From positions 5,422,501-5,486,500 of the forward strand of contig NZ_CP077093.1 in NCBI RefSeq assembly GCF_014268755.2: a DNA stretch of 64,000 nucleotides, in the 5' to 3' direction. The notes beneath the pieces are model-generated. The model was not told the origin of the DNA, did not search any database, and saw only the letters and a program-made list of their open reading frames with translations. The translations under genes and the position numbers were made by a program. Numbering within the stretch: position 1 is the first letter of the stretch; each line of letters begins with the position of its first letter. Source of the DNA: Pseudomonas vanderleydeniana (lineage in GTDB: Bacteria; Pseudomonadota; Gammaproteobacteria; Pseudomonadales; Pseudomonadaceae). Of this stretch, positions 6,832-61,107 are shown piece after piece.

Positions 6832-6845
6832 AAGGCGTATTTCAG

Positions 6846-6870: not shown

Positions 6871-6927
6871 TTAGCGCCATCCGGTGTTTCTGCTAGGGTC
6901 GGTGCATTCGAACAGAGAGCTCACGGG

Positions 6928-8182: not shown

Positions 8183-8188
8183 CGAATT

Positions 8189-8278
8189 TGGCGGTGAAGG
8201 AGAGATTCGAACTCTCGATACAGTTTCCTGTATACACACTTTCCAGGCGTGCTCCTTAAGCCACTCGGACACTTCACC
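8189..8278 (-). tRNA. tRNA-Ser (anticodon GGA)
   Basis: On the minus strand the 90-base gene runs from the acceptor stem ggtgaag (8278-8272) to cttcacc, discriminator g and an encoded CCA (8189-8191). The long variable arm gtgtatacaggaaactgtatc is typical of class II tRNA-Ser. The anticodon loop ctggaaa has GGA at 8244-8242, reading UCC and UCU. The T-arm has gttcgaat. It has its own promoter (8317-8345) and terminator. Confidence 0.96.
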
Positions 8279-9286: not shown

Positions 9287-9307
9287 TCCCCTGACAGGCC
9301 ACATCGC

Positions 9308-9334
9308 AAAGCCCGACCTCGCGTCGGGCTTTTT
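9308..9334 (+). terminator. Terminator after crotonase gene
   Basis: The sequence aaagcccgac-ctcgc-gtcgggcttttt forms a 10-bp stem with a T tract 20 bases after the crotonase stop. Confidence 0.9.
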
Positions 9335-9477
9335 CTTGCCTGTATAGCTCCACATCCAGTCGATCGAAGGGCTAAAACCCATACCCTTGATTGCCGTATC
9401 CGGTCCTCCTGGCATCGATTGCCGAATCCAGTGCACAACCGTACACTGCCTGACCTTTTGCCAGGGAAGCTCGCCAG

Positions 9478-10206
9478 ATGCTGTTCGTATTGCGCATGTC
9501 ATTGATGGGACTGCACTTCATTATTGCCGGGCTTCTCGGCCTGCTGCTCGTGCTCTGCCGCCCCTTCAACCCGGACAACAGCCGGCTCTGCGCGCGCGTC
9601 TATGCCCGCCCGGCCATGCGCATCCTGCGCCTGAAGCTCGACAGCGAAATCGAGTCTCTACGCGATCAATCGCAGAGCTGCGTGCTCATCGCCAATCACC
9701 AGTCCAACTACGACCTGTTCGTGTTCGGCAACGTGGTGCCCCGGCGCACCGTCGCCATCGGCAAGAAAAGCCTCAAGTGGGTGCCGTTCTTCGGCCAGAT
9801 TTTCTGGCTGGCGGGCAATGTACTGATCGATCGCGGCAATGCCTACCAGGCACGGCGGGCGATGCGGACCACCACCGACACCCTGCAACGCAAGGACACG
9901 TCGATCTGGGTGTTTCCCGAGGGCACCCGCAACCAGGGCCAGGAGTTGCTGGCCTTCAAGAAAGGTGCGTTCCAGATGGCGATCGCCGCCGGCGTGCCGA
10001 TCGTGCCAGTGTGTGCCAGCAACTACGTCCGGCATATGCGCCTCAATCGCTGGCGCAGCGGCCAGGTGATGATTCGCTCGCTGCCGGCGATCCCCACTGC
10101 CGGGCTGACCTCGGAAGACGTGCCCAGGCTGATGGCGCAGTGCCGGGAACAGATGCGCGAATGCATCGAGGCGATGGATCGGCAGGTACAGGCCGAGACA
10201 GCCTGA
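9478..10206 (+). CDS. 1-acyl-sn-glycerol-3-phosphate acyltransferase (PlsC type)
   Basis: The 242-residue membrane-anchored protein has an N-terminal hydrophobic helix (LMGLHFIIAGLLGLLLVL). The acyltransferase motif I is NHQSNYDLF (H-x4-D, near residue 78). FPEGTRNQG (motif III, near residue 146) and VPIVPVCASN (motif IV) follow. This is the full set for lysophosphatidic acid acyltransferases, which make phosphatidic acid at the inner membrane. Pseudomonads carry several paralogues, so the symbol plsC is not certain for this copy. An agggaagctcgccag site precedes the ATG. Confidence 0.9.
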   Translation: MLFVLRMSLMGLHFIIAGLLGLLLVLCRPFNPDNSRLCARVYARPAMRILRLKLDSEIESLRDQSQSCVLIANHQSNYDLFVFGNVVPRRTVAIGKKSLKWVPFFGQIFWLAGNVLIDRGNAYQARRAMRTTTDTLQRKDTSIWVFPEGTRNQGQELLAFKKGAFQMAIAAGVPIVPVCASNYVRHMRLNRWRSGQVMIRSLPAIPTAGLTSEDVPRLMAQCREQMRECIEAMDRQVQAETA

Positions 10207-10346
10207 GCGTTGTCGTTGCAGGCATTTATCGTGGGGGACCGCATCGACTAAAAGCCCTGTGCAAGGCATCGCAATCTTCTGGAGAGAGGCCAGGCAGGCT
10301 AAGCTGCACTTGTCTTTCCCCTTCAAAAGAAGAAGCGATCAGCATT

Positions 10347-11318
10347 ATGGGTAGAGTCGTTGCGGCCGCGGTGTACAGCGCCGGCAAGAAAGTCACCAAT
10401 ATCACCCTCGACGAAGGCGCCGCCTGGGCGGCAAAACCGGGACACTTCGTCTGGATCGGCCTGGAAGAACCCAACGCCCAGGAGCTGGCCAACCTGCAGA
10501 AGCAGTTCAACCTGCATGAACTGGCCATCGAGGATGCCCTGGAAAAACACAGCCGGCCGAAACTGGAAACCTTCGGCGATGCGCTGTTCATCGTCACCTA
10601 TTCGCCGATCCGCAACGAGGGCAAGCTGGAGTTCATCGAGACCCACATCTTTGCCGGCAAGGGCTACATCATCACTTGCCGCAACGGGCACTCGAAATCC
10701 TATGCCCATGTCCGTCAACGCTGCGAAGCCCGCCCGCTCCTGCTGGAGCACGGCGAGGACTTCGTACTCTATGCCCTGCTCGACTTCGTCACCGAGAGCT
10801 ACCAGCCGGTCAGCGAAGCCATTCACGCCGAGATCGACGAACTGGAGAGGAACATACTCTGCAGCACGCTGAACGAGGGGGATATCCAGCGCATCCACCA
10901 TCTGCGTCGCGACGTGCTGCGCCTGCGCCGCCATGTGGCGCCGATGGTCGAAATCAGCGAAGAGGTCTCGCGCCTGGCCTTCCCGTTCATCGACAAGAAC
11001 ATGCGTCCGTATTTTCGCGATGTGCAGATCCACGTGACCCGGCAGATGGAAGACCTGGCGACGCTGCGCGACATCGCCAGCCAGACCATCGAGATCGGCG
11101 CACTGCTGGAGTCGACCCGGCAGAGTATCGTGCAACGCAAGTTCGCCGCCTGGGCGGCGATCCTGGCGTTTCCCACGGCGGTCGCCGGGATCTACGGGAT
11201 GAACTTCCAGAACATGCCGGAGCTGAGCTGGCACTACGGCTACTTCACCGTGCTCGGGGCGATTGTCATTGGCTGCACGGCCTTGTGGGCCAGCTTCAAG
11301 CGCTCGGGCTGGCTGTGA
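10347..11318 (+). CDS. CorA-family magnesium/cobalt transporter
   Basis: This 323-residue protein has a large N-terminal cytoplasmic domain and two C-terminal transmembrane helices. The first (AAWAAILAFPTAVAGIYGMN) carries the signature GMN followed by FQNMPEL, which forms the selectivity loop. The second helix runs into the short tail KRSGWL. It is a pentameric Mg2+ (Co2+) channel of the inner membrane. The ATG at 10347 starts MGRVVAAAVYS; the frame is open far upstream, but that part has no homology-like content and overlaps the acyltransferase gene. Several CorA paralogues exist in Pseudomonas, so it is left unnamed. Confidence 0.92.
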   Translation: MGRVVAAAVYSAGKKVTNITLDEGAAWAAKPGHFVWIGLEEPNAQELANLQKQFNLHELAIEDALEKHSRPKLETFGDALFIVTYSPIRNEGKLEFIETHIFAGKGYIITCRNGHSKSYAHVRQRCEARPLLLEHGEDFVLYALLDFVTESYQPVSEAIHAEIDELERNILCSTLNEGDIQRIHHLRRDVLRLRRHVAPMVEISEEVSRLAFPFIDKNMRPYFRDVQIHVTRQMEDLATLRDIASQTIEIGALLESTRQSIVQRKFAAWAAILAFPTAVAGIYGMNFQNMPELSWHYGYFTVLGAIVIGCTALWASFKRSGWL

Positions 11319-11403
11319 ACCCGGCCTGCAGGTGATCCGGGCCTATGGCAAGCCTGCCTCCCCGAGGGAGACATGGCCCTGGACTGGCCCAAAAAACCGG
11401 GAA

Positions 11404-12132
11404 TCAGGCGGACTTGGCTTGCGGCTTGTGCGCGACGAAACGCATCATCCATTCCGCCACCGTCGTGCCGTGATGATCCTGATCGAGGCTGGCGATGCCC
11501 TTGGAGTAGATCGTCTCGCCAAGGTTCTGCTGGCGAATGTCCAGCAGCGCCCGCGAGTAGTCATGGATGAATTCGGGATGGCCCTGGAAGCACAGCACCT
11601 GGTCGTTGATGTGGTACGCCGCGTACGGGCAGAAATCGCTGCTGGCGATGACCGTGGCGTTCTCCGGCAATTCGGTGACCTGGTCCTGATGGCTGATCAG
11701 CAGCGTCAGCTCTTCACGCACCGGGCTCATCCAGGGGGCCTTGGCCGCCATCTTGTACTGGTGGATGCCGACGCCCCAGCCCTGGTGCGCGCGCTCGGTC
11801 TTGCCGCCCAGCAGCAACGCCAGCAACTGGTGGCCGAAGCAGATCCCCAGCAGTTTGTCGCCACGCTCGTAGCGGTTCAGCAGGTAGGTCTTGAGGGTCT
11901 GGATCCACGGGTCGCTGCCGAAGGAGTCGGCCTTGCTGCCCGTCACCAGGTAGGCGTCGAAAGTCAGGTCGTCACTCGGATAATGGCCCTGCATCACGTT
12001 GTAGATACTGAACTCGGCAGTGATTGGCTGGCGGGAGAACAGACGCTCGAACATCTTCCCATAGCCCTGATACTGCTCGACCAGCTCTGGACGCAGGACA
12101 TCGGTTTCCAGAATGCAGATGTGTAACGACAT
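11404..12132 (-). CDS. Class I glutamine amidotransferase-like protein
   Basis: The product has 242 residues. The nucleophile elbow GICFGHQLLALLLGG (Cys near residue 93) and the histidine of QGHPEF define a class I glutamine amidotransferase (GMP-synthase GATase type). There is no attached synthetase domain. Such stand-alone proteins (YfeJ-like) include gamma-glutamyl hydrolases that break down gamma-glutamyl-amines. Start is ATG 12132 (MSLHICILETD). It is followed on the same strand, after a 112-base gap, by no further gene; the fadB-like gene lies upstream on the same strand. Confidence 0.85.
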   Translation of the reverse strand: MSLHICILETDVLRPELVEQYQGYGKMFERLFSRQPITAEFSIYNVMQGHYPSDDLTFDAYLVTGSKADSFGSDPWIQTLKTYLLNRYERGDKLLGICFGHQLLALLLGGKTERAHQGWGVGIHQYKMAAKAPWMSPVREELTLLISHQDQVTELPENATVIASSDFCPYAAYHINDQVLCFQGHPEFIHDYSRALLDIRQQNLGETIYSKGIASLDQDHHGTTVAEWMMRFVAHKPQAKSA

Positions 12133-12243
12133 AAAAGTACCTGACGCGAAAGACCAAGGAGTGAAATCCGAGCCTGCCCTGAAACACGCGTCCAAGGCAA
12201 GCACGGAACACATCGGCGCCAGGCCAGGTTCAGCTCGCGCCCC

Positions 12244-14385
12244 TCAGAACCGCTCGTCCCTGGCGGCCTTGTCCAGCAGCAGCGCTGGCGGCGCGAACCG
12301 CTCGCCATACTGTTCGCTCAAGTAGCGGGCCCGGGCGACGAAATCCGCCAGGCCGTACTGGTTGATGAACTGCAGCGCGCCGCCGCTCCAGGCGGCAAAG
12401 CCGATGCCGAAGATCGAACCGACGTTGGCATCCGCCGTCGACTGCAATACCCCCTCTTCCAGGCAACGCACGGTTTCCAGGGCCTGTACGAAAAGCAGCC
12501 GGTCGCGCACATCGCGTGGTGGGATCTGCCGCTCGGGCTTCTCGAAGTGCAGCTTCAGGTCCGGCCACAGGTGCTTCTGCCCACCCGCCGGGTAATCGTA
12601 GAACCCACCGCCCGCCGCCTTGCCCGGACGCTCGAACGCCAGCAGGCGGTCGATCACCGCAAACGCCGGATGATCCGGCACCGACCGGCCTTCAGCCAGC
12701 AGGTCACGGGCGGTCTGCTGGCGGATATGACTCATCAGGCTCAGCGACACCTCGTCGGAGACCGCCAGCGGCCCTACCGGCATGCCGGCCTTGCGCGCCT
12801 CGTTCTCGATCAGCGCCGCCGTGATGCCCTCGCCGAGCATGGCAATGCCTTCGTTGGTGAAGGTGCCGAATACCCGTGAAGTGAAGAAACCGCGACGGTC
12901 GTTGACCACGATCGGCGTCTTGCGGATCTGCTGGACGAAATCGAAGCCCCGGGCCAGGGTTTCGTCACTGGTCTGCGCGCCCTTGATGATCTCCACCAAT
13001 GGCATCTTCTCCACCGGGCTGAAGAAATGCAGGCCGATGAACTTGTCCGGTCGCGGCACCGCCGTCGCCAGGCCGGTGATGGGCAGGGTCGACGTATTGG
13101 AGGCGATCACCGCCTCGGCATCGACCACCCGTTGCGCGGCCGCCGACACCCGGGCCTTGAGGTCGCGATCCTCGAACACCGCCTCGATGATCAGGTCGCA
13201 GCCAGCCAGGTCGTCATCCGTGGCCGTTGGCTGGATCCGCCCGAGCGTCACCTCACGCTGCTCAGGGCTCAACCGGCCGCGGGCCACCTGCTTGTCCAGC
13301 AACGCCGCCGAGCGGGCCTTGCCCTGCTCGGCGACCGCCAGGCTGACGTCCTTGAGCACCACCTCGATGCCGGCCACGGCGCTGACATGGGCAATACCCG
13401 CGCCCATCATCCCGGCCCCGAGCACGCCGACCTTGCGGGTGACATGGGGCTCGATCCCCCTGGGACGCGAACCGCCGGCGTTGATCTCGTTCAACTGGAA
13501 CCAGAAGGTGCCGATCATGTTCTTCGCCACCTGGCCGGTGGCGAGCTCGGTGAAATAGCGGGTCTCGATCAGGTGCGCGGTGTCGAAATCGACCTGGGCG
13601 CCCTCCACCGCCGCGCAGAGGATTTTCTCCGGGGCCGGGAAACAGCCGTAGGTCTTGCAGCGCAGGATCGACGGCGCAATGGCGAGCATCTGCGCGACCT
13701 TGGGGTCGCTCGGCATGCCACCCGGCAGTCGATACCCCGGCAGGTCCCAGGGCTGACGAGCCTGGGGATGTTCGATGATCCACGCGCGGGCCTTGGCCAA
13801 CATGTCGTCGACGTCGCTCGCCAGTTCACCGAGCAGGCCGGCCTGCAGCGCCTGCCGAGCCGAGAGCTTCTTGCCTTCGAGCAGGTACGGCAGGGCCTTC
13901 TCCAGGCCCAGCAGGCGCACCATGCGCACCACCCCGCCCCCGCCGGGCAGCAGGCCCAGGGTGACTTCCGGCAAGCCCAGTTGCACGGCCTTGTCGTCCA
14001 GGGCGATGCGGTGCTGGCAGGCCAGGCAGATCTCCCAGCCACCCCCCAGGGCGGCACCGTTGATCGCGGCCACCACCGGCCGCTGCAGGGTTTCCAGCGC
14101 CCGTAACTGCGCCTTCAGCTCGAGTACGCCGTCATGGAAGGCTTGCGCGTGCGCTGGCGTGACCTTGATCAACTCGTTGAGATCACCACCGGCAAAGAAG
14201 GTCGGCTTCGCCGAAGTGATGATCACCCCGGCCAGCTCCTCGCGCTCGGCGGTCAGGCGTGCCACGCAGCCGGCCATCGCCTCGCGGTAGGCGGCATTCA
14301 TGGTGTTGGCCGTCTGGCCGGGCATGTCCAGGGTCAGGACAACGATCCGGTCGGCACCCTTTTCGTAGCGAATGGCATCAGTCAT
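12244..14385 (-). CDS. Fatty-acid oxidation multifunctional enzyme: enoyl-CoA hydratase plus 3-hydroxyacyl-CoA dehydrogenase (FadB/FadJ-like)
   Basis: This 713-residue fusion has an N-terminal crotonase domain (FAGGDLNELI near residue 70; NGAALGGGWEICLACQHRI near 110; GLLPGGGGVVRMVRL near 145). It has an NAD-binding 3-hydroxyacyl-CoA dehydrogenase domain (KVGVLGAGMMGAGIAHVSA near 320; SNTSTLPI; GLHFFSPVEKMPLVEII with catalytic His) and a C-terminal 3HCDH helical domain (VNDRRGFFTSRVF, GNxxFAAW-like IGFAAWSGG). It catalyses hydration and oxidation in beta-oxidation and partners the thiolase encoded 20 bases upstream. It is not the classical fadB gene by sequence; it is a paralogue. Start is ATG 14385 after gggaaacctgcc. 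Confidence 0.93.
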   Translation of the reverse strand: MTDAIRYEKGADRIVVLTLDMPGQTANTMNAAYREAMAGCVARLTAEREELAGVIITSAKPTFFAGGDLNELIKVTPAHAQAFHDGVLELKAQLRALETLQRPVVAAINGAALGGGWEICLACQHRIALDDKAVQLGLPEVTLGLLPGGGGVVRMVRLLGLEKALPYLLEGKKLSARQALQAGLLGELASDVDDMLAKARAWIIEHPQARQPWDLPGYRLPGGMPSDPKVAQMLAIAPSILRCKTYGCFPAPEKILCAAVEGAQVDFDTAHLIETRYFTELATGQVAKNMIGTFWFQLNEINAGGSRPRGIEPHVTRKVGVLGAGMMGAGIAHVSAVAGIEVVLKDVSLAVAEQGKARSAALLDKQVARGRLSPEQREVTLGRIQPTATDDDLAGCDLIIEAVFEDRDLKARVSAAAQRVVDAEAVIASNTSTLPITGLATAVPRPDKFIGLHFFSPVEKMPLVEIIKGAQTSDETLARGFDFVQQIRKTPIVVNDRRGFFTSRVFGTFTNEGIAMLGEGITAALIENEARKAGMPVGPLAVSDEVSLSLMSHIRQQTARDLLAEGRSVPDHPAFAVIDRLLAFERPGKAAGGGFYDYPAGGQKHLWPDLKLHFEKPERQIPPRDVRDRLLFVQALETVRCLEEGVLQSTADANVGSIFGIGFAAWSGGALQFINQYGLADFVARARYLSEQYGERFAPPALLLDKAARDERF

Positions 14386-50878: not shown

Positions 50879-51865
50879 TCAGTTTTGGGTAGGCAAAGCT
50901 GCCCACTGCACCAGCAGGGCCTCGAGCAGCAGCACCCGGTTGAGGTTGGCCTTGCTCAACACCTTCTGGCGTTGGGCAAGAATCCAGTCCTGGATATTCA
51001 GTACCTTCTCCCGGGACGCCTTCTGCGCCAGGTACTGCACCACCTTGCGCATATCCGCCAGGCCGAGGCCGTCCTCGTCCTGGGTCAGCTGATAACGCAG
51101 GATCAGGTTCGACCAGTCACAGAACCAGTCGAACAGCAGCAACAGCGAGATGGCGTTCCAACCTTCGGCCAGTTGGGTCGCCGACATCTGTTGCTTGAGC
51201 AGTTTCTTCACCCCGTCAACCACCTGGGCCCTTTGCTCGCGCACGCCCTGGCTCTGCAGGTTGGCCGCCATCAGCGGCGAACCTGCCGCCAGGGTCAGCA
51301 GTTCCACCCGTTCCTCTTCGCTGCAGTCAGGCAAGGCAGCGGTCAGCCACTGCAGGCTCATCGCCTCGCTCGGCAACGGACAGGCCTGCTGCACGCAGCG
51401 GCTGCGCACGGTCGGCAGCAGGCGGCTGGACTGGTGGCTGACCAGCAGCAGCACGGTGTCGCCGGACGGCTCCTCCAGGCTCTTGAGCAGGGCGTTGGCA
51501 GCGTTGATGTTCATCGACTCCACCGGCTCGATCAGCACCACCTTGCGCCCGCCCAACTGCGCAGTCTGGGCGACGAAGCCGACCAGGTCGCGTACCTGGT
51601 CGACCTTGATCGCCTTGTCGGCTTCCTCGGGTTCCAGGATGTAGTTGTCCGGGTGACTGCCAGCCGCCAGCAGCAGGCATGACTTGCACTGCCCGCACGC
51701 CTCCAGGCCTGCCGGGCTCTTGCACAGCAGCAGTGCCATCAGCCGCTCGGCCAGCGCCCGCTTGCCGATCCCCGCCGGGCCATGCAGCAGGTAGGCATGG
51801 GCATGCTGGGTACGACCGGCCAGTTGCTGCCAGAGGCTGCCCTGCCAGGGATAGGCTTCAGCCAT
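50879..51865 (-). CDS. holB: DNA polymerase III subunit delta'
   Basis: The product has 328 residues. AAA+ features: AYLLHGPAGIGKRALAERLM (Walker A-like GPAGIGK), the four Cys of the zinc site (ACGQCKSCLL and nearby), and SRCVQQACPL. HolB is part of the clamp loader. Start is ATG 51865 (MAEAYPWQGSL). In other pseudomonads tmk lies directly upstream of this gene; here there is none (see findings). Confidence 0.95.
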   Translation of the reverse strand: MAEAYPWQGSLWQQLAGRTQHAHAYLLHGPAGIGKRALAERLMALLLCKSPAGLEACGQCKSCLLLAAGSHPDNYILEPEEADKAIKVDQVRDLVGFVAQTAQLGGRKVVLIEPVESMNINAANALLKSLEEPSGDTVLLLVSHQSSRLLPTVRSRCVQQACPLPSEAMSLQWLTAALPDCSEEERVELLTLAAGSPLMAANLQSQGVREQRAQVVDGVKKLLKQQMSATQLAEGWNAISLLLLFDWFCDWSNLILRYQLTQDEDGLGLADMRKVVQYLAQKASREKVLNIQDWILAQRQKVLSKANLNRVLLLEALLVQWAALPTQN

Positions 51866-52021
51866 GCTGCAACCCCGTCGCGAGCGCACGACAGCACGCG
51901 CCAGCCTGTTGTTTTATCTTGATAAAAAATCTAAACACAGCAGTATGGGTATCCTTTCGACAACCGGTAAACAGGGAGGCCTCTTGCATCGGCCACTCTG
52001 GCAAGGCTCCAGGAGCACAGT

Positions 52022-52840
52022 TTGAGAACCATCATCGGGCTAGCCGCACTCGCCAGGTCCGGCAAAGACACGGTAGCGTCAATGCTGCTCGCACAAGCGG
52101 AGATCGCCGCATTCGCCCTGGCCGATCCACTCAAGGTCGGCTGCCAGGCCCTGTTCGGCCTGAGCGATGAACAAACCTGGGACGATACATTAAAAGAGCA
52201 GAAGATTGATCTGTGGAACCGTTCCCCGCGCGAGTTCTTCCAGCAAGTCGGCACGGAATGGATGCGCAATCATAACCCAGACCACTGGTTGCAGCGGGCG
52301 GATCGCGAGATCAATCCGCCGCAGGACGACAGTGCCTGGTCGGGCACGCCGGACCTGGCGGCCGCCGACGCGCCCTTTCGCCTGGCGGCCCAGGCGTTCT
52401 TCGACTTTTCGGATGCGCAGATCTGGGACACGGGACATTACTCGCAGGTCGATCCGAGCTGGAACATTTCCCCACGGGAGGCCGTGGCCCTGATCGAACG
52501 GCACGCCCTGGCCTTCGACCCCGACTACGCGGCAAAACGCGCCCGGCTGCCGCTGATGCCGCTCAAGCGCCGTCCGCCGCTGCCGGCCAGCGCCTCGACG
52601 ATCATCATCAAGGACATCCGCTTCGAGAACGAAGCCAGGTACCTGCGCGAGCACCATGGCGTGATCTGGCACATCACCCGCCCCAATCTGCAACGGGTCA
52701 ATGCGCACTCCTCGGAACTGGGCGTCGCACGTCAGCCCGAGGATGTATTGATCGTCAATGACGGCAGCCTGGAGCATTTGCAGACAGCAGTGATGCAGGC
52801 ATGGCAGCAGCACAGAACCATCACCCGGGCAACCCCCTGA
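52022..52840 (+). CDS. Deoxynucleoside-monophosphate-kinase-like P-loop protein with internal duplication
   Basis: The product has 272 residues. It starts at TTG 52022 (aggagcacag just before it). The P-loop is GLAALARSGKDT (residues 6-17). LADPLKVGCQALFGLSDEQTW, then SPREFFQQVGTEWMRNHNPDHW, and DIRFENEARYLREHHGVIW with the conserved D-x-R-F-x-N-E match phage-type (T4 gp1-like) dNMP kinases. A second copy of the helical block (AAQAFFDFSDAQIWDTG, SPREAVALIERHAL) is inserted at residues 120-165, which normal dNMP kinases lack. The gene is alone on its strand in the place of tmk. Role in dTMP phosphorylation is inferred. Confidence 0.75.
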   Translation: MRTIIGLAALARSGKDTVASMLLAQAEIAAFALADPLKVGCQALFGLSDEQTWDDTLKEQKIDLWNRSPREFFQQVGTEWMRNHNPDHWLQRADREINPPQDDSAWSGTPDLAAADAPFRLAAQAFFDFSDAQIWDTGHYSQVDPSWNISPREAVALIERHALAFDPDYAAKRARLPLMPLKRRPPLPASASTIIIKDIRFENEARYLREHHGVIWHITRPNLQRVNAHSSELGVARQPEDVLIVNDGSLEHLQTAVMQAWQQHRTITRATP

Positions 52841-52862
52841 AACCTGGCCGCCTTCACGCCCC

Positions 52863-52894
52863 CTGCAGGAGCCTGGCTTGCCAGCGAAATGGCG
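52863..52894 (+). repeat. Single REP-like copy
   Basis: ctgcaggagcctggcttgccagcg... is a single half of a REP element between the kinase-like gene and prfH. No inverse partner lies within 100 bases. Confidence 0.6.
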
Positions 52895-52959
52895 CTCAAG
52901 CCCTCCTCCGCACTCGCTGTCGGGCTGGCGCGTGCAGCCACCCGCCCGACGGCGCGATG

Positions 52960-53577
52960 TCAGTGCAGCGGTTCGAACCGCTCGCCGACGAACACCCGGC
53001 CAGGATTACCGCGCTCCACCTGATGGTGCAGCAGGCGCCGCGCCGCACGTGCGCCGGCCGCATCGCACTCCGCCAACGCCTCCAGCTTCAGCGCGATAAG
53101 GCCCAGCGCCAACCGCTTGTTCGCGTGCTGGCTACGCTCCGACTGCACCTTGACGCTGATGCCGCTGGCCAGGTGGGTAGCCCGCACCGCCGATTCGGTG
53201 CGGTTGACGTGCTGGCCACCAGGTCCTGACGCGCGCAGGGTCTCGAAGCGGATTTCCCCCGCCAGGCCAGCGGCCGGCTCCGGGCAACGCGCTACGCCGA
53301 TGAACCAGTTCTTGCGCTGGTGGCGCGGCCGGTAGGGACTGGTCGCCTGCCACTGCAGCGTGCCGATCCATTGCGCCGCCAGCACTTCGGCAGTCGCTCC
53401 CTCCAGACTCAGCAGCGCCGAGCGCAGTGTGCCCGGCCGCGGACCGTCCTCCTGCTCCAGCAGCGTCATCCGTACAGTTTGCGCCTCGGCCTCCACCTGC
53501 AAGCGCTTCAGCGCCTTGGCCACGGCCAGGCAGCATTCCTCCGGCCCCTGGGCGGCGGAAAATTGCAGCAGAACCAT
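52960..53577 (-). CDS. prfH: Peptide chain release factor H (PrfH)
   Basis: This 205-residue protein is a class I release factor reduced to the catalytic domain. The GGQ motif lies in [20 protein letters not shown] (near residue 120). There is no codon-recognition domain of the RF1/RF2 type. PrfH acts with RtcB2 on ribosomes damaged in the 16S decoding centre, releasing the stalled peptide so that RtcB can re-ligate the RNA. Start ATG 53577 overlaps the rtcB stop (TGATG), so the two are translationally coupled. Confidence 0.9.
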
Positions 53578-54713
53578 CAGCAGCACTCCCCGCGGGTTTT
53601 ATAGGTCAGCACCGGCGCCAACCGCGCCAATGGCCGCACCAGGCCAGCCCGGACCAGGGTATCGACGATGCTGTCCACCGGTTTGTAGGCCTCCGGCGCC
53701 TCCTCGTAGATCAGCTGCCGATCCTCGCAGATCACATGGCCGCCCAGGCGGGTGCGCCCCAGTTGTGCCGGACTGAAGCGCCGCGACAACCGATCCTTGC
53801 ACTCACTGCGCATCCACTTGCGCCCGGCGCCATGCGCCAGCGACAACAGGCTCAGCTCGCTGGGCAGAGGCTCCACCAGATAGGTGAAATCCCCGCGCGA
53901 ACCGGGAATCGCCACCAGTCCGGCATCCGCCGGTGTCGCGCCCTTGCGGTGCAACCAGCCGTCGACGCCGCGGATGCGGGCCGGCGATACCAGGTTGTGG
54001 TTGACGTCCAGCAGCAGCTCGCCCTCGGCACGCAGCCGCTCCAGCATGCGCTGCGCAATCAACAGCCGGTTGGCCTCGGCAAAGCGCAGGCCCTCGTTGT
54101 GACGGGCCAGGTAGGCGGCGCAATCCGCGCTGCCCTCCAACAAGCCGGCGTGGCCGTGCTGGTCTACCTGCTCGCGCAGAATGGCCTGGCCCAGGCCACG
54201 CGAACCACTGTGCACCAACAGCAGCAGCCGCTTGGAATCCAACGCCAGTTCGGCGCTGCGTTCGACGTCGTAGATCTGGTCCACGCGTTGCAGCTCGGCG
54301 AAATGATTGCCGCCGCCGATAGTGCCCAGCGCGCCTTCGAAGCCGCTCGCCGGCAGCGCCAGCGCCGCCACCCGCTCTTGCCAGTCTTCGTCCAGCGGGC
54401 GATCCAGGTTGCCCAGCCGCTTGTCCAGTTTGTCTGCGCTCAGTTTGCCCACGGCGAGGTCCGTGCGCCACAGCGCCATGCCGCAGCCGATGTCGCCGCC
54501 GATCAAGGCCGGGTACAAGCGCCCCACGGAAAAGAAGGCCGCGCCCACGGGATAGCCGCGACCGGGGTGCAGGTCCGGCATACCGGCCACGCGGGCCATG
54601 CCCGGCAGCGCAGCGGTGGTGTGAAGTTGCTGGATCGCGGAGCCCTCGATCCAGGTGTCGTCCGAGGCCAGCAAAGTGACGGTCTCGGACAGGGTTTGCA
54701 TGCAATTGCCCAT
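53577..54713 (-). CDS. rtcB: RNA-splicing ligase RtcB-type (RtcB2, PrfH-associated)
   Basis: The product has 378 residues. Metal and guanylate sites: [13 protein letters not shown] (near residue 45), [10 protein letters not shown] with the Cys ligand, [19 protein letters not shown] and the nucleophile His in [12 protein letters not shown]. RtcB joins 2',3'-cyclic phosphate to 5'-OH RNA ends using GTP and Mn2+. At about 380 residues it is the short PrfH-linked form, rather than the house-keeping RtcB of about 480. Start ATG 54713 (MGNCMQTL) follows ggatgggattattc; ATG 54701 is also possible. Confidence 0.92.
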
Positions 54714-55249
54714 GAATAATCCCATCCATCCGGCAAGACGCGACGGCCCGGCGCGACGGATGCGCAGGCACGATACGGTCCCGAACCGGACGGTTCAGTA
54801 AAACGAAATCAGGAAATGTTGGCTAGGACAGAGCCGGGGCCGAAGGCCATTCGACGTGCGCGGCAGCAGTGCCGGGCACGGGGGAATTCAAGCTTGGGCG
54901 CGCTCTGCCAGGGAAAATGCGATGTTTTGCATGATGGTCTCCTTGGCTGCGTGATGGAAGAAAGGCCAGCATGCTAGCGCAGATGCGGCAGTGATACAAC
55001 AGGCTGCCGGGCGCAGACATGCACAAGCCTACTGATCCGGTACATACCTGAGTATCTTGCAAACTATCAGAAACCAACTTTTTACTTGCCAGCCATTTCG
55101 TCAACAATTGGAACCATCGTTCCGCTTAACTGGTTCGTCCCGCTATGCAAAGACTCCCTCGAAAGCCGCAGTTTTCTTGACCTGCATTAGAAATGCCCGG
55201 ACAATTCAGCACTGTTTCAACTATTTACTCAGGATGAGTAAGCAACTTC
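54714..55249. other. Interval upstream of rtcB, with a 14-codon frame
   Basis: Between rtcB and the divergent LysR gene there is no long frame. The minus strand contains a well-spaced small frame at 54888-54932 (listed separately). The region 55020-55200 is more AT-rich than the rest of the window and probably contains the promoters of both genes. I looked for a sigma-54 -24/-12 pair, common before rtcB operons, and found none that fits. Confidence 0.5.
54888..54932 (-). CDS. 14-residue peptide upstream of rtcB
   Basis: ATG 54932 follows caaggagaccatc, one of the best ribosome-binding sites in the window, and opens MQNIAFSLAERAQA (stop at 54888-54890). It lies about 175 bases upstream of rtcB in the same direction. 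It may be a leader peptide whose translation reports on ribosome state, or the start of a lost gene. No other evidence. Confidence 0.35.
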   Translation of the reverse strand: MQNIAFSLAERAQA

Positions 55250-56176
55250 ATGGAAGACCTGGTTAGAAAGCTGGATCTGGTTTCATTGCGCCTGTTTGCC
55301 GCCGTATGCCAGGAAGGCAGTATTTCCCGTGCTGCAGAACGTGAGTTCATTACGGCATCAGCTGTAAGTCGCCGAATCTCGGAAATCGAAGCGCTGGTCG
55401 GACTGCCACTGATCCATCGTCATGCGCGTGGCATCAACGTGACACCCGCTGGAAATGCCGTCTGGCAAAGTGCTCTGAGCGTTGCCGACAGCATCCAGGA
55501 ACTGGGGGCCGAGCTCCTGCAATTCAGGTCCGGAAGCAAGGGCACCGTCCGCGTCGTCGCCAACCCCTCCACCGTCATGCAGTTCCTGACCCAGGACATT
55601 GCCGCTTTCGCCCGACTGTTCCCGGACATCGACGTCGAACTTGAGGAACAGCCCAGTCCGCAAGCCGTGCGGACCATTGCCGGACATGGTGCGGACTTCG
55701 CCATCTGCAACGAGATCTGCGGCCTTGATGATTTTGACGCGGTGCCCTATCGGCAGGACCAACTTTGCGTCCTGCTGCCAAAACGGCACCGACTTGCTGT
55801 CGCCGACTCATTGCAACTGGCAGAGTTAACCGCAGAGAAAGTGATCGGCCTGAAGCTCGACACCTCGTTGATGCAACTGCTCAAGCGCGAATACGCGACA
55901 TTGGGGGCCCTGTTCATCACCAGCAGCCGGGCCGCCAGCCTCGAGGCAATGTGCCGCATGGTGCACGCCGGATTGGGCATCGCCATCGTGCCCAAGCTCG
56001 TTGGTGAAATGTATGTCGACATGCTGGACGTCGCGCTACGCCCCCTGCTTGCGCCCTGGGCAATCCGCCAATCCTTTCTGATCTGCAATGGCCGTCATGG
56101 CTTGAGCGCCACGGCCAATGCGCTGGCCAGCTTCCTGACCGAAGGCAAGCATTTCTTCCGCTCGAACATTCATTGA
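55250..56176 (+). CDS. LysR-family transcriptional regulator
   Basis: The 308-residue protein has an N-terminal helix-turn-helix (DLVSLRLFAAVCQEGSISRAAE, then TASAVSRRISEIEALVGLPLI) and a LysR effector domain (VRVVANPSTVMQFLTQDIAAF, GLGIAIVPKLVGEMY). It converges on the cysteine desulfurase operon (48 bases between stop codons) instead of being divergent from it. Its sequence near TNVTPAGNAVW-like GINVTPAGNAVW is typical of this family. Codon use is slightly more AT-rich than in the flanking core genes. Confidence 0.88.
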   Translation: MEDLVRKLDLVSLRLFAAVCQEGSISRAAEREFITASAVSRRISEIEALVGLPLIHRHARGINVTPAGNAVWQSALSVADSIQELGAELLQFRSGSKGTVRVVANPSTVMQFLTQDIAAFARLFPDIDVELEEQPSPQAVRTIAGHGADFAICNEICGLDDFDAVPYRQDQLCVLLPKRHRLAVADSLQLAELTAEKVIGLKLDTSLMQLLKREYATLGALFITSSRAASLEAMCRMVHAGLGIAIVPKLVGEMYVDMLDVALRPLLAPWAIRQSFLICNGRHGLSATANALASFLTEGKHFFRSNIH

Positions 56177-56224
56177 ACCAGGGCGACGCGTAAACATCGC
56201 CCCCGTTCGGCAGGATGATCGATA

Positions 56225-57379
56225 TCAGCCCGAGACGACCTTGGCCTCGACTGAAAGGATCGACCTGATTGCCTCGCAAAACGCCAGCACTTCCTCCGGC
56301 CGAGACAGCGGGCTGAACGATACCCTCAGTGTGGAACCCATTTCGGCGGGGGTGAGTTTCATGGCGCTCAGGACCCGGGAAGGTACGGGTGAAACACTGC
56401 TGCAAGCCGAGCCCTTCGACACACAGATATTGCGTTGTGCAAGAAGCTTCATGGCCTTGCTAGCATCCAGCCCGGCAAAGCGCAGGGAAAACACATAGCC
56501 GGAGGTATCACCGTCCTGCGTATTGAGCGAAAAGGCAACGTGCAGGCGTGCAAGCGTCTCTAGCAGCAGAGTGCCCAATTGCCGCACATGACTCTGGAAC
56601 CCATCGGCATTCCTTTCATGATGCCGCAGCGCCCGATACAACGACTCGATCCCGTAGAGGTTCTCCGTGCCCGGACGGATACCGGATTCCTGCTCTCCGC
56701 CAAGCTGGAGCGGAAACAGCCTGAGGCGATGACTCAGGAAGAAGAAACCGATCCCCTTGGCGGCTCCCAACTTGTGTCCCGAACCAATAATGGCATCCAC
56801 ACACGCCAGGTCAGGCGCCGCCACCTTGGTCAACATCTGCACACCATCGCAAATGACCGGAATCTGCGCGTCGAGCATCTTCACCCGCCGGGCGATCTCA
56901 TCCACCGGCTGACACGCTCCAGTTTCATTGTTGACCCCCATGACCAGCACCATGGCAGTACGCTCACTGAGGGCGTCATACAGATAGGAAGTTTCGATAA
57001 TGCCGCAGCGATCGACCGGCACCACGTCGATGCCGAAGCCAAGCTGTTGCATATGCTTGACCGTATTGAATATCGCCGGGTGCTCGATTGCGCTGACAAT
57101 GATCTGGTTGCGCGGCGATTGCGTCGCCTTCAAGAACTGGCAGTGGCCCTGGATGATGAGGTTGGCCGCCTCCGTGGCGCCAGAACAGAAGTAGTACTCA
57201 CCGGGCCGACCACCGAACAGCGCGCTCAACTGGTCTCGGGTCCTATCCAATATCGCCTTGGCCGCATGCCCTGCCGGATGATCGCTGGACGGATTACCCG
57301 GCGCGACCTGAAAATTGACGGCATCGCCGAATGGCAGTGCGGAAGCGGCATTGTCGAGATAGATCATCGAGGCAGTCAT
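56225..57379 (-). CDS. Cysteine desulfurase (class V aminotransferase fold)
   Basis: The 384-residue protein has NifS/IscS features: YLDNAASALPFGDAV at the start, CSGATEAANLIIQG, the PLP lysine in GSGHKLGAAKGIGFF (near residue 200) and a catalytic loop cysteine in SKGSACSSVSPVPS (near residue 330), followed by LRVSFSPLSRPEEV. It would take sulfur from cysteine as a persulfide and release alanine. It is not next to iscU, sufE or tRNA-modification genes, so the acceptor is unknown. It follows the unknown gene with no gap (TGA then ATG). Confidence 0.9.
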   Translation of the reverse strand: MTASMIYLDNAASALPFGDAVNFQVAPGNPSSDHPAGHAAKAILDRTRDQLSALFGGRPGEYYFCSGATEAANLIIQGHCQFLKATQSPRNQIIVSAIEHPAIFNTVKHMQQLGFGIDVVPVDRCGIIETSYLYDALSERTAMVLVMGVNNETGACQPVDEIARRVKMLDAQIPVICDGVQMLTKVAAPDLACVDAIIGSGHKLGAAKGIGFFFLSHRLRLFPLQLGGEQESGIRPGTENLYGIESLYRALRHHERNADGFQSHVRQLGTLLLETLARLHVAFSLNTQDGDTSGYVFSLRFAGLDASKAMKLLAQRNICVSKGSACSSVSPVPSRVLSAMKLTPAEMGSTLRVSFSPLSRPEEVLAFCEAIRSILSVEAKVVSG

Positions 57380-58378
57380 TCAAACGAGCTCCATGTTGTT
57401 GCCCTGCAGCACATCCTGCACTTGCGCAATGAAGGCCCCGCTGTCGAGACTTCTGCTGCCCACCACATCCTTGCCAATGAAGGAGTACTCAATCTGTTCA
57501 TCCTGATTGACGATGATCTGGGCGCAGTTCCTAGAAAACTTTTCGATCAGTACATTGGCGGCGACAATGCCACGAGCGACCTTTTCACCGATGAACTCAT
57601 CGTCACCCCTGGCATAGACGGCAATGTGATCGGTGGCATTGTCGAACTGGCACAACAGCCCACCGTAAGTTGCTGGACACAGCACTCGCCCCCCGGTTTC
57701 GTAGAGATTGATCACCGGATTCTTCTTCAACCGCACCAGCGGACAATGCTCCAGATCACGCTGATTGATCGAGCCATAATCTTTCCACCAGGTCCCGCCG
57801 AAATAACTGTCTTCAACCCGAGTATCATAAAGATAGGGTGTGGTCAGCGAAAACAGCCCCTGATTTTCCGTAGACAGGAAAAGCGCATTGGTCTGCTGGA
57901 ATGTTTCGTGAAGATAGTCCGGATTGACCGCCTTGAGCTGCTCAATGCCTGAACGCGTACGTCGCAGGACTTTCTTGAACAGGTCATTGCCCCGGGACTG
58001 GAGGATAACCTTCACCCGCTCGAGCGGTACGCCATGCTTTTCGAGAATCCCTCTATAGGCCACAGGGATATAATCGGCTTTTTGCTCGCCTTGCAGATCC
58101 TGAGCAATTTTCCGACGCTCGTCATTGCCGCCCTTGATACCCAACAGGTCAGACAGACAGAGGTTGAGCAAAATTTTTCGGTCCGTGTGTTGTAACGCTG
58201 CAAACAGTTCGACACCCAACTTGAAGGTCAGCAGTTCGCTCGCACTGGGCGCTCCCTGTACCCCGAAGCGATATCCCTGGTCAGAGGAAAAGATCGTGGT
58301 ATGCCCACAGTCGATGACAATGTTCTCCCGGAATTCCTTTTGTAAGGTGATTGCTTGAACGATCGACTTGATATCCAT
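57380..58378 (-). CDS. Protein of unknown family, middle gene of the cysteine-desulfurase operon
   Basis: The product has about 332 residues, soluble, and no family recognised. Visible elements: IVIDCGHTTIFSSDQGYRFG near the start, then ALQHTDRKILLNLCLSDLLG, a charged central region, a Cys-containing block EHCPLVRLKKNPVINLYETG, LCPATYGGLLCQFDNATDHI and the end QDVLQGNNMELV. Several cysteines are scattered without a metal-cluster spacing. ATG 58378 (gag 8 bases before it) was chosen over GTG 58387. It lies between the AlaE-like gene (12 bases) and the desulfurase gene (0 bases), so it is certainly in the operon. Confidence 0.8.
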   Translation of the reverse strand: MDIKSIVQAITLQKEFRENIVIDCGHTTIFSSDQGYRFGVQGAPSASELLTFKLGVELFAALQHTDRKILLNLCLSDLLGIKGGNDERRKIAQDLQGEQKADYIPVAYRGILEKHGVPLERVKVILQSRGNDLFKKVLRRTRSGIEQLKAVNPDYLHETFQQTNALFLSTENQGLFSLTTPYLYDTRVEDSYFGGTWWKDYGSINQRDLEHCPLVRLKKNPVINLYETGGRVLCPATYGGLLCQFDNATDHIAVYARGDDEFIGEKVARGIVAANVLIEKFSRNCAQIIVNQDEQIEYSFIGKDVVGSRSLDSGAFIAQVQDVLQGNNMELV

Positions 58379-58390
58379 ATACCGCACTCA

Positions 58391-58852
58391 TCAGTCCAGA
58401 TTGAATAGTTTTCTTCTTATATAGGCCCTGTAGAGGCCATAGGGCCTGCCAACAACACCTGCAATGACACAGAATATCAACGCAGCCTTCAACGCCTGCA
58501 CCAGCGAGGCACCGCTGATACTCATGTTGATCATATAAAGGGGAAGTTCGAAGGAGAGATAGGCCAAGGTATCGACGATATAAGGCTTTAGTCCGGTATC
58601 GCTGGCCGACAGTTTCATTCTCCGAAACACGAAATCGCGCCAGATCCCGAACGGACGAGCGGTCCCGGTGATAATGAATAAGCCGATGAACCGTGCCATC
58701 AGGTGAGTCGTAAAACTCATCTGGGCAAAGCCGAGTTCAATAGGGATAGAAATGAAATAACAGAACGTATTGAGCGCGAATGTATCAGCCCAGAAATTCT
58801 TCAAGCGCTGACTACCGGACGCAACTTCCAGATTATTATTTAGCGACGACAT
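58391..58852 (-). CDS. AlaE-like L-alanine exporter
   Basis: This 153-residue protein has four hydrophobic segments and the AlaE pattern: WADTFALNTFCYFISIPIE, SFTTHLMARFIGLFIITGTA followed by RPFGIWRDFVFRR, YIVDTLAYLSFELPLYMIN and GVVGRPYGLYRAYIRRKL. E. coli AlaE has the same layout (ADTFA..., YGMYRD, D-LAY-TFQ-P-Y, GAVYGYFLDYCRR). It is the first gene of the operon with the unknown gene and the cysteine desulfurase, which produces alanine. Divergence from E. coli AlaE is large, so the substrate needs proof. Confidence 0.7.
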   Translation of the reverse strand: MSSLNNNLEVASGSQRLKNFWADTFALNTFCYFISIPIELGFAQMSFTTHLMARFIGLFIITGTARPFGIWRDFVFRRMKLSASDTGLKPYIVDTLAYLSFELPLYMINMSISGASLVQALKAALIFCVIAGVVGRPYGLYRAYIRRKLFNLD

Positions 58853-58879
58853 GAGGGAGCGAAAACTCTTACCAGGTTG

Positions 58880-58899
58880 ATTGCAACATTATTTGCAAT
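58880..58899. promoter_or_regulatory. Inverted repeat attgcaa-N6-ttgcaat upstream of the alaE-like gene
   Basis: Perfect 7-base arms with a 6-base spacer lie 28 bases before the start codon at 58852. The sequence is a good candidate for the operator or activator site of the three-gene operon. Confidence 0.5.
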
Positions 58900-59121
58900 A
58901 ATCCCGGGATGATACGAGATTTCCGGGAGTGCCCCTATCTCGTTTGCAGACGACAGCTGTTCCGGTTCGAGATGGCTCTCCACCCAGGCTGACTACGCAC
59001 CTGCACGACCCTGCGATCCCTACCAGGTTACTGGAGCGCTCTATCTGTCATGGCAGGATTCAACGAAACCCTGCCGACCAGCCACCACGGACCTGACAGA
59101 GCCGGAAATAGGTTCCCCATG

Positions 59122-59130
59122 GCCGGTCAC
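59122..59130 (-). pseudogene. Vestigial tmk start codons after mltG
   Basis: On the minus strand gtgaccggc overlaps the mltG stop (cag-tga) exactly as the tmk start does in other pseudomonads, where the protein begins (V/M)TGLF. After these three codons the sequence departs from tmk and the frame stops at 59041. No other tmk-like sequence is present between holB and mltG. Confidence 0.5.
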
Positions 59131-60290
59131 TGAGCGTCTTTCGTCTCAGGCTCGGAGACAGGCGGCACTTGTGCCGGCTCGCCGGGTTCCTGGGCTGGCA
59201 CGACAGGCTTGGCCTCGGCGCCCGGCGCAGGACTCGCCGCGCCCCCCGGAGCCTGAGCGGGCGCCGGGCTCGAGCGATAGTCTGCCCGTCGCTTGAGCTG
59301 GAATTCACGCACCGCATTGTTGTGCGAGTCCAGGTCATCGGAGAAGACATGGCTGCCATCGCCACGGGCGACGAAGTACAGGCTCTTGCCCTCCACCGGA
59401 TTCAGCGCGGCATGGATCGCCTCACGACCGACCATCGCAATCGGGGTCGGCGGCAGGCCGACGTTGAGGTAGGTGTTGTAGGGGTTGGCTTCGCGCAGGT
59501 GGGCCCGGGTCAACTTGCCGGTGTAGCGCTCGCCCAGGCCATAGATCACCGTCGGGTCGGTCTGCAGCAACATGCCGAGCTGCATGCGGCGCACGAACAC
59601 ACCAGCGATCTGCCCGCGCTCCTGGGGTACGCCGGTTTCCTTCTCCACCAGCGAGGCCATGATCAGCGCCTGGTAGGGTTCGGTATACGGCGCGTCGGCC
59701 GAACGCTTCTCCCACTCCTGGGCCAGGACGTTCTGCAGGCGGTCGTAGGCTTTTTCCAGCAGTTCGGCATCGGTCATCCCACGCACGAATCGATAGGTAT
59801 CCGGGAAGAAACGCCCTTCCGGAAATACATCCTTGTGGCCGAGCCTGGTCATGACTTCGCTATCACTGAGGCCGGCCAGGGTCTGCTGGAGTTTTTCCTG
59901 CTTGGCGAGCGCATTGCGCACTTGGTGGAAGTTCCAGCCCTCGACCAGGGTCAGGCTGTACTGCACCACTTCACCCCGCTGCCAGAGACCGAACAACGTA
60001 CGCACGGTCATGCCCGGCGTGAGGCGATATTCGCCGCTGTGCAACTGCACCCCGGACAGGTTGAAGCGCCAGTACAACCGCAGCCAGAAGGCATCATGCA
60101 GGGTGCCCTCGGCCTCCATGCGGTTGAAGGTACCGGTAGGTGTCGCACCGGCCGGCACGTCGAGCAATTGCTCCTGCGTCACATCGAGGGTCTGCTCCAG
60201 CGCAGAATGGATCTTCCAGGCCGAAACGCCCAGCAGCAATCCCGCCAGCACCAGACCAGTCTGCAGCAGCAACAAGAATTTACGTATCAA
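59127..60290 (-). CDS. mltG: Endolytic murein transglycosylase MltG (YceG)
   Basis: The product has 387 residues. An N-terminal membrane anchor (LLLLQTGLVLAGLLLGVSAW), a LysM-like part and the catalytic YceG domain with the Glu of ALIMASLVEKETGVPQERGQ, then DPTVIYGLGERYTGKLTRAHL and NPYNTYLNVGLPPTPI are visible. The C-terminal tail of about 60 residues is Pro/Ala/Glu-rich (PAPAQAPGGAASPAPGAEAK). It cuts nascent glycan strands. I prefer TTG 60290 (ggaag 6 bases upstream). The next gene upstream in most pseudomonads (tmk) is missing here. Confidence 0.93.
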   Translation of the reverse strand: MIRKFLLLLQTGLVLAGLLLGVSAWKIHSALEQTLDVTQEQLLDVPAGATPTGTFNRMEAEGTLHDAFWLRLYWRFNLSGVQLHSGEYRLTPGMTVRTLFGLWQRGEVVQYSLTLVEGWNFHQVRNALAKQEKLQQTLAGLSDSEVMTRLGHKDVFPEGRFFPDTYRFVRGMTDAELLEKAYDRLQNVLAQEWEKRSADAPYTEPYQALIMASLVEKETGVPQERGQIAGVFVRRMQLGMLLQTDPTVIYGLGERYTGKLTRAHLREANPYNTYLNVGLPPTPIAMVGREAIHAALNPVEGKSLYFVARGDGSHVFSDDLDSHNNAVREFQLKRRADYRSSPAPAQAPGGAASPAPGAEAKPVVPAQEPGEPAQVPPVSEPETKDAQ

Positions 60291-60291
60291 T

Positions 60292-61107
60292 TCAAACTTC
60301 CAATAACGCGCGGGCAATGCCTTGCAGTTTACGGGTGAGCGGCCCCACCGACCAGCTCAGATCGGCAAATGCACGAACTGGCCAGACACCATAAACGCTG
60401 TTACAGAGAAAGACTTCGTCAGCCTGCTGGAATTGCTCCAGGCTGATGTCAGAGATATCCACAGGCACGCCCAAGGCGCGCGCCTGGTCCAGCAACTCGG
60501 CGCGCATCACCCCGGCCACGCCGCAACGGCTCAGGTCCGCGGTACGCAACACGCCCTCACTGACGAGAAACAGGTTACTGAATACACCCTCGATGACTCG
60601 CCCGGCGGCGTCGAGCATCAACCCTTCGGCATGCTCGCCATCGTGCCACTCATTGCGGGCGATGACCTGCTCCAGCCGGTTGAGGTGCTTGAGACCGGCC
60701 AGCAGTGGCTGTTCGGATAAACGGGTGGTGCAAGGAAAAAGGCGGATACCCAGGTTCTGCAGGGCCGGTGGATAACTCGGCAAGGGACTGCCTTGCAGGA
60801 TACGCCGCGGCTGCGCATCAGCCGCCGCCGCGTAGCCACGCAGGCTGTCGCCACGAGTGAGGATCAGCTTGAGCACGCCCTCGCCCATCGCGGCGCTATA
60901 GACCAGCAACTCGCTGCGAATCAACGGCTGATTCGCAGCGAGGCCCAGCCGGCGACAGCCTTCGGCCAGGCGCTGCAGGTGCCGCTCGAGCAACACCGGG
61001 CGCCCGCCCTTGACGGCGATGGTCTCGAACAAACCGTCGCCATAGGCCAGGCCACGGTCCTTGAGCGGCAGGGAATCAGCCGGCTGACCGTCGACCCAGC
61101 TCTGCAT
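60292..61107 (-). CDS. pabC: Aminodeoxychorismate lyase
   Basis: This 271-residue class IV PLP enzyme starts [20 protein letters not shown]. The PLP lysine is in TRLSEQPLLAGLKHLNRLEQV, and the class IV signature is EGVFSNLFLVSEGVL. It releases p-aminobenzoate and pyruvate from aminodeoxychorismate for folate synthesis. The ATG at 61107 overlaps the fabF stop (TGATG). This order fabF-pabC-mltG is normal. Confidence 0.95.
   Translation of the reverse strand: MQSWVDGQPADSLPLKDRGLAYGDGLFETIAVKGGRPVLLERHLQRLAEGCRRLGLAANQPLIRSELLVYSAAMGEGVLKLILTRGDSLRGYAAAADAQPRRILQGSPLPSYPPALQNLGIRLFPCTTRLSEQPLLAGLKHLNRLEQVIARNEWHDGEHAEGLMLDAAGRVIEGVFSNLFLVSEGVLRTADLSRCGVAGVMRAELLDQARALGVPVDISDISLEQFQQADEVFLCNSVYGVWPVRAFADLSWSVGPLTRKLQGIARALLEV

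What the first reader, a model, noticed from the sequence alone, without database searches (positions are those of the whole stretch)
51866..59130. tmk is missing between holB and mltG and replaced by about 7 kb of accessory genes
The sequence shows holB (start 51865) and mltG (stop 59127-59129) on the same strand with no thymidylate kinase between them. After the mltG stop only gtgaccggc remains, which fits the first three codons of a typical Pseudomonas tmk (VTGLF...), then the frame changes and stops at 59041. Knowledge: in other pseudomonads the order is mltG-tmk-holB and tmk is essential. Inference: an element or a recombination event removed tmk and left unrelated cargo in its place. dTMP kinase activity must come from another tmk copy or from the kinase-like gene at 52022.
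Basis: partly seen in the sequence, partly recalled or inferred. Interest (0 to 1): 0.8.

Follow-up and report, generated by a model that had tools for sequence, protein, structure and literature searches.

The report
Phage-type kinase replaces essential tmk
This Pseudomonas genome has no thymidylate kinase gene (tmk), which bacteria need to make DNA, and in its place stands a virus-type kinase gene, likely left by a mobile DNA island that landed in tmk, which is predicted to do the job; the same swap has been shown by experiment in Pseudomonas putida.

The parts
50879..51865 (-). holB (DNA polymerase III delta'), the gene that normally overlaps the tmk stop
   Evidence: PF13177 E 6.4e-44, PF09115 E 7.6e-9; most homologues align from about the codon at 51865
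51866..52021 (.). holB-kinase intergenic region; 51909-51972 resembles the right end of tmk islands (TTGTTTT ... TAAAC ... GTAAAC with the same 36-base spacing); no tmk coding sequence left
   Evidence: HMM of 18 island ends: its only window hit with E<=10 is at this site, but the score is weak (E 9.6; 0.1 in P. fuscovaginae SE-1, 3.9 in IRRI 6609; none in L065, L138, L139); near-identical in four asplenii-group genomes
52022..52840 (+). T4-type deoxynucleotide monophosphate kinase (DNMK), predicted sole dTMP kinase
52960..53586 (-). PrfH release factor (cargo)
   Evidence: TIGR03072 301 bits, cut-off 167
53577..54725 (-). RtcB2 RNA ligase (cargo; overlaps prfH)
   Evidence: TIGR03073 587 bits, cut-off 272; in pieces in P. 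fuscovaginae SE-1, whole in IRRI 6609
55250..56176 (+). LysR-family regulator (cargo)
   Evidence: PF03466, PF00126
56225..57379 (-). cysteine desulfurase-like class-V aminotransferase of the DndA/SspA/NifS kind (cargo)
   Evidence: PF00266; PADLOC SspA 269 bits, DndA 255; below all NCBIfam cut-offs
57380..58387 (-). unnamed 335-aa protein, predicted class-I aminoacyl-tRNA-synthetase-like fold (cargo)
58391..58852 (-). AlaE-type L-alanine exporter (cargo)
   Evidence: PF06610 E 6.2e-28
59127..60317 (-). mltG, the gene that normally precedes tmk
   Evidence: PF02618 E 1.1e-81

Best explanation
The genome has no tmk, and the phage T4-type deoxynucleotide monophosphate kinase at 52022-52840 is predicted to supply the essential dTMP-to-dTDP step in its place, having likely arrived on a genomic island that inserted inside tmk. 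Shown by sequence: absence of any Thymidylate_kin gene over threshold; a full, conserved kinase beside holB, divergent from it as in the island loci read; relatives in which tmk is cut at one fixed site by an island whose holB-side end carries this kinase. Inferred: an ancestor of the P. asplenii/fuscovaginae group took such an island; the kinase made tmk dispensable; both tmk halves and the recombinases were then deleted while the kinase was kept; the space between kinase and mltG now gains and loses other genes (PrfH-RtcB2, then the LysR to AlaE block here). Untested: catalysis by this particular protein.
For: No PF02223 in the genome. In 298 genus genomes 9 have a long DNMK (frames 284-383 aa) and 9 of 9 lack an intact tmk, while 14 of 14 with the short DNMK keep a strong match; Fisher p 2.5e-16, not corrected for kinship. 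Over all long-DNMK genomes tested for PF02223, an intact tmk was found in 0 of 26 distinct genomes and both halves in 15. The 13 left and 18 right junctions read lie at the codons for DRFT|DSTYAYQ. Kinase tree: the window and three sister strains (100/99) lie in a 14-row group (99/97) whose other rows are seven split-tmk islands, one with a decayed half, and two tmk-less relatives (82/99 for the smaller set). HolB tree: the window and two P. fuscovaginae strains (100) lie in a group (97) with seven intact-tmk relatives. Kinase dN/dS 0.156 at dS 0.36, close to the dS of holB 0.31 and tatD 0.43, so held vertically and under constraint. 22 of 31 KT2440 dNMPK pocket and ATP residues are identical if the numbering is taken as equal (list). 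KT2440 dNMPK is essential, replaceable by E. coli tmk, and rescues a tmk-deficient E. coli (PMC10653934).
Against: No island recombinase, tmk half or left island end was found in the window. The island-end likeness upstream of the kinase is weak by score (E 9.6). No split-tmk intermediate was found inside the asplenii group. The nearest island-borne kinases are only about 63-64% identical, so the donor island was not seen. Exclusion is not absolute in print: PMC10653934 reports P. parafulva NS96 with an intact tmk and an unannotated dNMPK-like sequence at 44% identity. Four of the 26 genomes are metagenome bins (G323, G325, G326, G332), where absence is less sure. The kinase is less constrained than holB (dN/dS 0.053) or tatD (0.024). 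No enzyme assay.
Confidence: 0.85

Rival explanations
1. The kinase gene replaced tmk directly, by a recombination event from a phage or another bacterium, without a tmk-splitting island.
For: No mobility genes, tmk halves or left end were found in the window, and no asplenii-group strain with a split tmk was seen.
Against: Same position and divergent orientation as island kinases; kinase in a 99/97 group made mostly of island copies; island-end-like sequence upstream (weak); in other lineages intermediates exist: P. bohemica G085 with a decayed half, G163 with a short tmk stretch fused to an island end.
Confidence: 0.1
2. The standalone kinase is the old state and islands later picked it up (the alternative left open by Wirth et al. 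2023).
For: Standalone copies exist in distant hosts (their text; here a Methyloprofundus bin, L138).
Against: In Pseudomonas the tmk-less rows fall in three separate places on the kinase tree, all three forced by well-supported branches, and the window clade sits inside hosts with intact tmk.
Confidence: 0.04
3. Another unrecognised enzyme makes dTDP and the DNMK gene is incidental.
For: Activity of this protein has not been measured; a weak full-length Tmk-like match exists in some relatives (IRRI 6609).
Against: The window genome has no such weak full-length match; PP_3363 of KT2440, a poorly Tmk-like gene, could be deleted (that the weak matches are of its kind is my inference); the kinase is under purifying selection.
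Confidence: 0.03

Closest known systems
P. putida KT2440 tmk genomic island with dNMPK PP_1964 (Wirth et al. 2023, PMC10653934)
   Same: T4-type dNMPK next to holB in place of a working tmk; 22 of 31 listed residues identical if numbering is taken as equal
   Different: Here no tmk half and no recombinase gene is left, and about 6 kb of cargo without mobility genes separates the kinase from mltG. The authors' engineered strain SEM11, island removed and kinase kept, resembles the natural state of G815.
Standalone dNMPK beside holB in Alcaligenes, Parapusillimonas, Methylomicrobium (same paper)
   Same: kinase in place of tmk, no mobility genes nearby, no tmk detected in the genome
   Different: This one is in Pseudomonas, where relatives with the split and with the intact gene are at hand, so the direction can be read; it also carries cargo
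Phage T4 dNMP kinase (PDB 1DEK)
   Same: fold, P-loop and several dNMP-site residues
   Different: 24% identity over 176 aligned residues; predicted cellular essential role
SE / GInt / Tn554-type integrative elements (PMC10214605, PMC5385486; passages and search listing seen)
   Same: islands of relatives carry tyrosine recombinase genes with partners, a fixed target and apparently a 6-base footprint
   Different: membership not tested by sequence; 'tmk' does not occur in either main text; the window itself keeps no such module

Membership tests
Pfam PF21448 DNMK | score over the curated cut-off | tested here: met
   72.7 bits against 27.1
T4-type dNMP kinase | fold of 1DEK with P-loop and dNMP-site residues | tested here: met
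   [not shown]
T4-type dNMP kinase | phosphorylates dTMP | not testable with these tools
   needs an assay or complementation
dNMPK standing in for tmk | no intact tmk in the genome | tested here: met
dNMPK standing in for tmk | kinase flanked by holB and mltG | tested here: met
   with cargo on the mltG side
KT2440-type tmk island | tmk split in two halves | tested here: not met
   no half in the window or genome
KT2440-type tmk island | four conserved genes after the kinase, two of them recombinases | tested here: not met
   kinase is followed by prfH-rtcB2
KT2440-type tmk island | conserved island end next to the kinase | tested here: inconclusive
   only HMM hit in the window falls at the right place and spacing, but E 9.6
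SE element (for the islands of relatives) | homology of the module to IntA, Tfp, IntB, Srap | not tested
   no SE protein sequence was fetched; two of the four L136 module proteins match Phage_integrase, one of them below the curated cut-off

The most novel reading that the evidence does not exclude
Pseudomonas is repeatedly invaded by one-way, site-specific islands that destroy the essential gene tmk at one codon and pay for it with a phage kinase; because the cell then lives on the island's kinase, the swap cannot be undone, and after the recombinases decay the locus stays on as a permanent cargo hotspot. The window's lineage has run this course to the end, one of at least three independent completions in the genus.
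Probability: 0.55. Interest if true: 0.7.

Novelty: new member of a known kind. Interest (0 to 1): 0.5.

Why it matters
It indicates that a textbook essential gene can be lost for good after a mobile element brings a substitute, and lines up the stages across relatives: intact tmk, split tmk with island, decaying half, short junction scrap, nothing. For Pseudomonas it argues for a direction that the 2023 paper left open, and it warns that tmk is not a safe universal marker or drug target in this genus.

Tried and rejected
Second tmk copy in the genome: rejected. tmk remnant after mltG: rejected. Left island end near mltG: an HMM of 13 left ends gave no hit at E<=10 in the window or in four other tmk-less loci. 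Plasmid or phage origin of the 7 kb: no near match of 50879-60317 in plasmids; kinase matches in plasmids (4 records) cover at most 35% of the query; phage matches are 30-43% identical in the 20 of 254 records listed, all 254 under 60%. A search of viral contigs with the 335-aa family gave no relative, of plasmids none.

Rows set aside: G139 and G179 have tmk pieces at contig ends, G075 and G240 are 87% and 77% complete, so these four were left out of the Fisher count; counting them as lacking gives p 4.4e-14. The test ignores shared ancestry. That the remaining 284 have an intact tmk is read from their strong best E, not from each gene. In one search the HolB row for IRRI 6609 was out of frame (my coordinates) and is dropped. 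L138 (Methyloprofundus bin, 2.1 Mb) is incomplete; it was in the trees (where the tmk-less label needs four changes, three forced) and was left out. L140 was not held for the tmk search. In one search the two rows named as outgroup did not form one side of a branch; one search has a prophage outgroup. In a phylum sample of 398 genomes, 1 matched at E<=1e-30, the window's own, so rarity outside Pseudomonas is a sample statement. SE kinship of the islands: a plasmid search with one island recombinase found 9 records with integrases or a hypothetical protein at 22.6-27.3% identity, the 358-aa protein found nothing, so it stays an analogy. PADLOC gave only the lone SspA/DndA-like desulfurase among five cargo proteins. 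That the short DNMKs are prophage genes is my guess; it was not tested.
Full report
OBSERVATION. The window is bases 5,422,501-5,486,500 of a one-contig, 7,026,924-base genome whose nearest named kin are Pseudomonas. holB (50879-51889 minus; most homologues start near the ATG at 51865) and mltG (59127-60317 minus) are 7.3 kb apart and no tmk lies between them. The Thymidylate_kin family PF02223 has no match in the genome at E<=1e-3; at E<=10 the best is 0.016 over 27 profile positions. In the genus sample 294 of 298 genomes match at 1e-3, some only weakly, and the control rings in 13 of 14 well-known genomes.

It consists of mltG's last G and stop TGA plus CCGGC. In tmk-bearing relatives G044, G169 and G037 the mltG stop and the tmk GTG are about 19 bases apart, and two P. 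fuscovaginae strains have other sequence after a TAA stop.

RELATIVES. PF21448 occurs in 23 of 298 genus genomes: 14 with short frames (190-240 aa, one 115) and 9 with long frames (284-383 aa). All 14 short-type genomes keep a strong tmk match (E 3.6e-45 or better). All 9 long-type genomes lack an intact one. Five of the nine (G096, G172, G252, G262, G287) have two tmk halves, one beside mltG and one between the kinase and holB. Of the 289 others, one lacks tmk at its site (G108, below), two have tmk pieces at contig ends and two are incomplete. Four of the 26 are metagenome bins. The distance between halves on one contig runs from 12.6 kb (P. protegens FD6) to 114 kb (G262). A larger genus sample has the long kinase in 15 of 398, a phylum sample in 1 of 398, the window's own. 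Against strict exclusion, PMC10653934 names P. parafulva NS96 with intact tmk and a dNMPK-like sequence of 44% identity.

In the junctions read the cut lies between the codons for DRFT and DSTYAYQ: 13 left junctions and 18 right ones, of which one adjoins a decayed half (G085) and two only a short tmk scrap (G163, UBA4617). The left side shows six variable bases after ACC and then a conserved element end, the right side keeps the host's own bases, as expected of a six-base footprint (my reading). The kinase is the first gene at the holB side. In 12 of 18 loci it is followed by genes of about 735, 720, 340 and 440 aa in three families, the first two in one; FD6 has three such genes; three loci end too soon or are incomplete there; G163 and UBA4617 have other genes. 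Of the four in P. psychrophila two match Phage_integrase, one of them below the cut-off. These are probably the four conserved genes of PMC10653934, two of which that paper calls recombinases. The layout recalls SE, GInt and Tn554-type elements; PMC10214605 says that an SE generates no empty site (passages read). I did not test membership.

THE WINDOW'S LINEAGE. Nearest kinases are P. fuscovaginae SE-1 (90%), IRRI 6609 (89%) and G815 (91%); NCBI files P. fuscovaginae under P. asplenii. In SE-1 the kinase is followed by pieces of prfH and rtcB2 and then mltG, about 1 kb in all; in IRRI 6609 by prfH, rtcB2 and a set with a haem-containing dehydratase, amidase and nitrile hydratase, about 10 kb; in G815 by 0.4 kb and mltG; in the window by 6.3 kb. 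SE-1 and G815 have no PF02223 match, IRRI 6609 a weak one (8.9e-7). The seven nearest genomes by MltG in the genus sample (84-89% identity) all have mltG-tmk-holB with a full-length tmk. The HolB tree puts the window and the two P. fuscovaginae strains together (100) inside a group (97) with those seven. So the loss is derived and older than the split of the window from P. fuscovaginae (inference). Between window and SE-1 the kinase has dN/dS 0.156 at dS 0.36, against holB 0.053 at 0.31 and tatD 0.024 at 0.43: kept vertically, under constraint, though less than these neighbours.

The kinase tree with a prophage-type outgroup places the window and P. fuscovaginae (100/100) in a 12-row group (82/99) with six split-tmk islands. 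With G815 and two more islands added and the incomplete Methyloprofundus row removed, the window quartet (100/99) is in a 14-row group (99/97), as sister to ten rows that are mostly islands, and the tmk-less label needs three changes, all three forced by well-supported branches. The other tmk-less pairs, G163 with UBA4617 and G003 with P. cremoricolorata, group with island-borne copies at 100/97 and 100/99. The island kinases of P. rubra and P. protegens FD6 differ at dS 0.16 while holB differs at 0.98 and tatD at 1.21, so the islands have moved between these species rather recently.

Steps between, seen in different lineages: P. bohemica (G085) has a decayed C-terminal tmk half (54%); G163 keeps a few tmk codons joined to an island end; the window clade keeps, at 51909-51972, a stretch with the island end's motifs at the same 36-base spacing. 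An HMM from 18 island ends has its only hits (E<=10) in the six sequences searched at this place in the three clade members, but scores are weak (E 0.1, 3.9, 9.6), and G003, P. cremoricolorata and L138 give none. No left end was found.

MECHANISM. Likely course: an island entered tmk in an asplenii-group ancestor, its kinase took over dTMP phosphorylation, tmk halves and recombinases were lost, and the slot between kinase and mltG kept exchanging cargo. Shown: absence, presence, position, constraint, grouping with island copies. Inferred: entry by island, order of loss, catalysis. The catalytic claim rests on homology with KT2440 dNMPK. In that work the whole island could be removed if the kinase or E. 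coli tmk was kept, stop codons could be put into the kinase gene in all tested colonies with E. coli tmk in trans and in none without, and the kinase rescued a tmk-deficient E. coli. Of that paper I read the abstract, most of the introduction, the result sections on the knock-outs, island replacement, base editing and complementation, phylogeny and structure, and the discussion; not the expression-tuning section, the methods or the supplement.

KNOWN OR NEW. The kind is known: that paper reports islands with dNMPK in tmk in Pseudomonas, Halomonas, Acinetobacter and Psychrobacter and standalone dNMPK flanked by mltG and holB with no tmk. Eight library searches were made; by the titles listed, that is the only paper on this subject among them. 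New here, as far as those searches show: this lineage, the counts of exclusion, the fixed cut site over many islands, and the tree evidence that standalone copies in Pseudomonas arose from islands at least three times.

Noticed in passing
[not shown]
   Followed up: partly
L129 (G108) near 4689-4800 and L130 3720-4421: Another Pseudomonas has mltG close to holB with neither tmk between them nor any DNMK match; a divergent 233-aa Tmk-family gene elsewhere may be the substitute, possibly a second way to lose tmk. Its holB also matches in two pieces.
   Followed up: partly
L213 (P. fuscovaginae IRRI 6609) 4854-12831: The same slot holds an AraC regulator, a haem-containing dehydratase, amidase, nitrile hydratase and CobW-type genes, so the kinase-mltG gap looks like a cargo hotspot.
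   Followed up: partly
L067 (G163) 1958-9247 and L148: Two tmk-less relatives carry a catabolic set (dihydroxy-acid dehydratase type, aldehyde dehydrogenase, MFS, LysR in G163; related frames in L148) between kinase and mltG.
   Followed up: partly
L131 7744-8661: prfH and rtcB2 are in pieces in P. fuscovaginae SE-1 but whole in the window and IRRI 6609.
   Followed up: no
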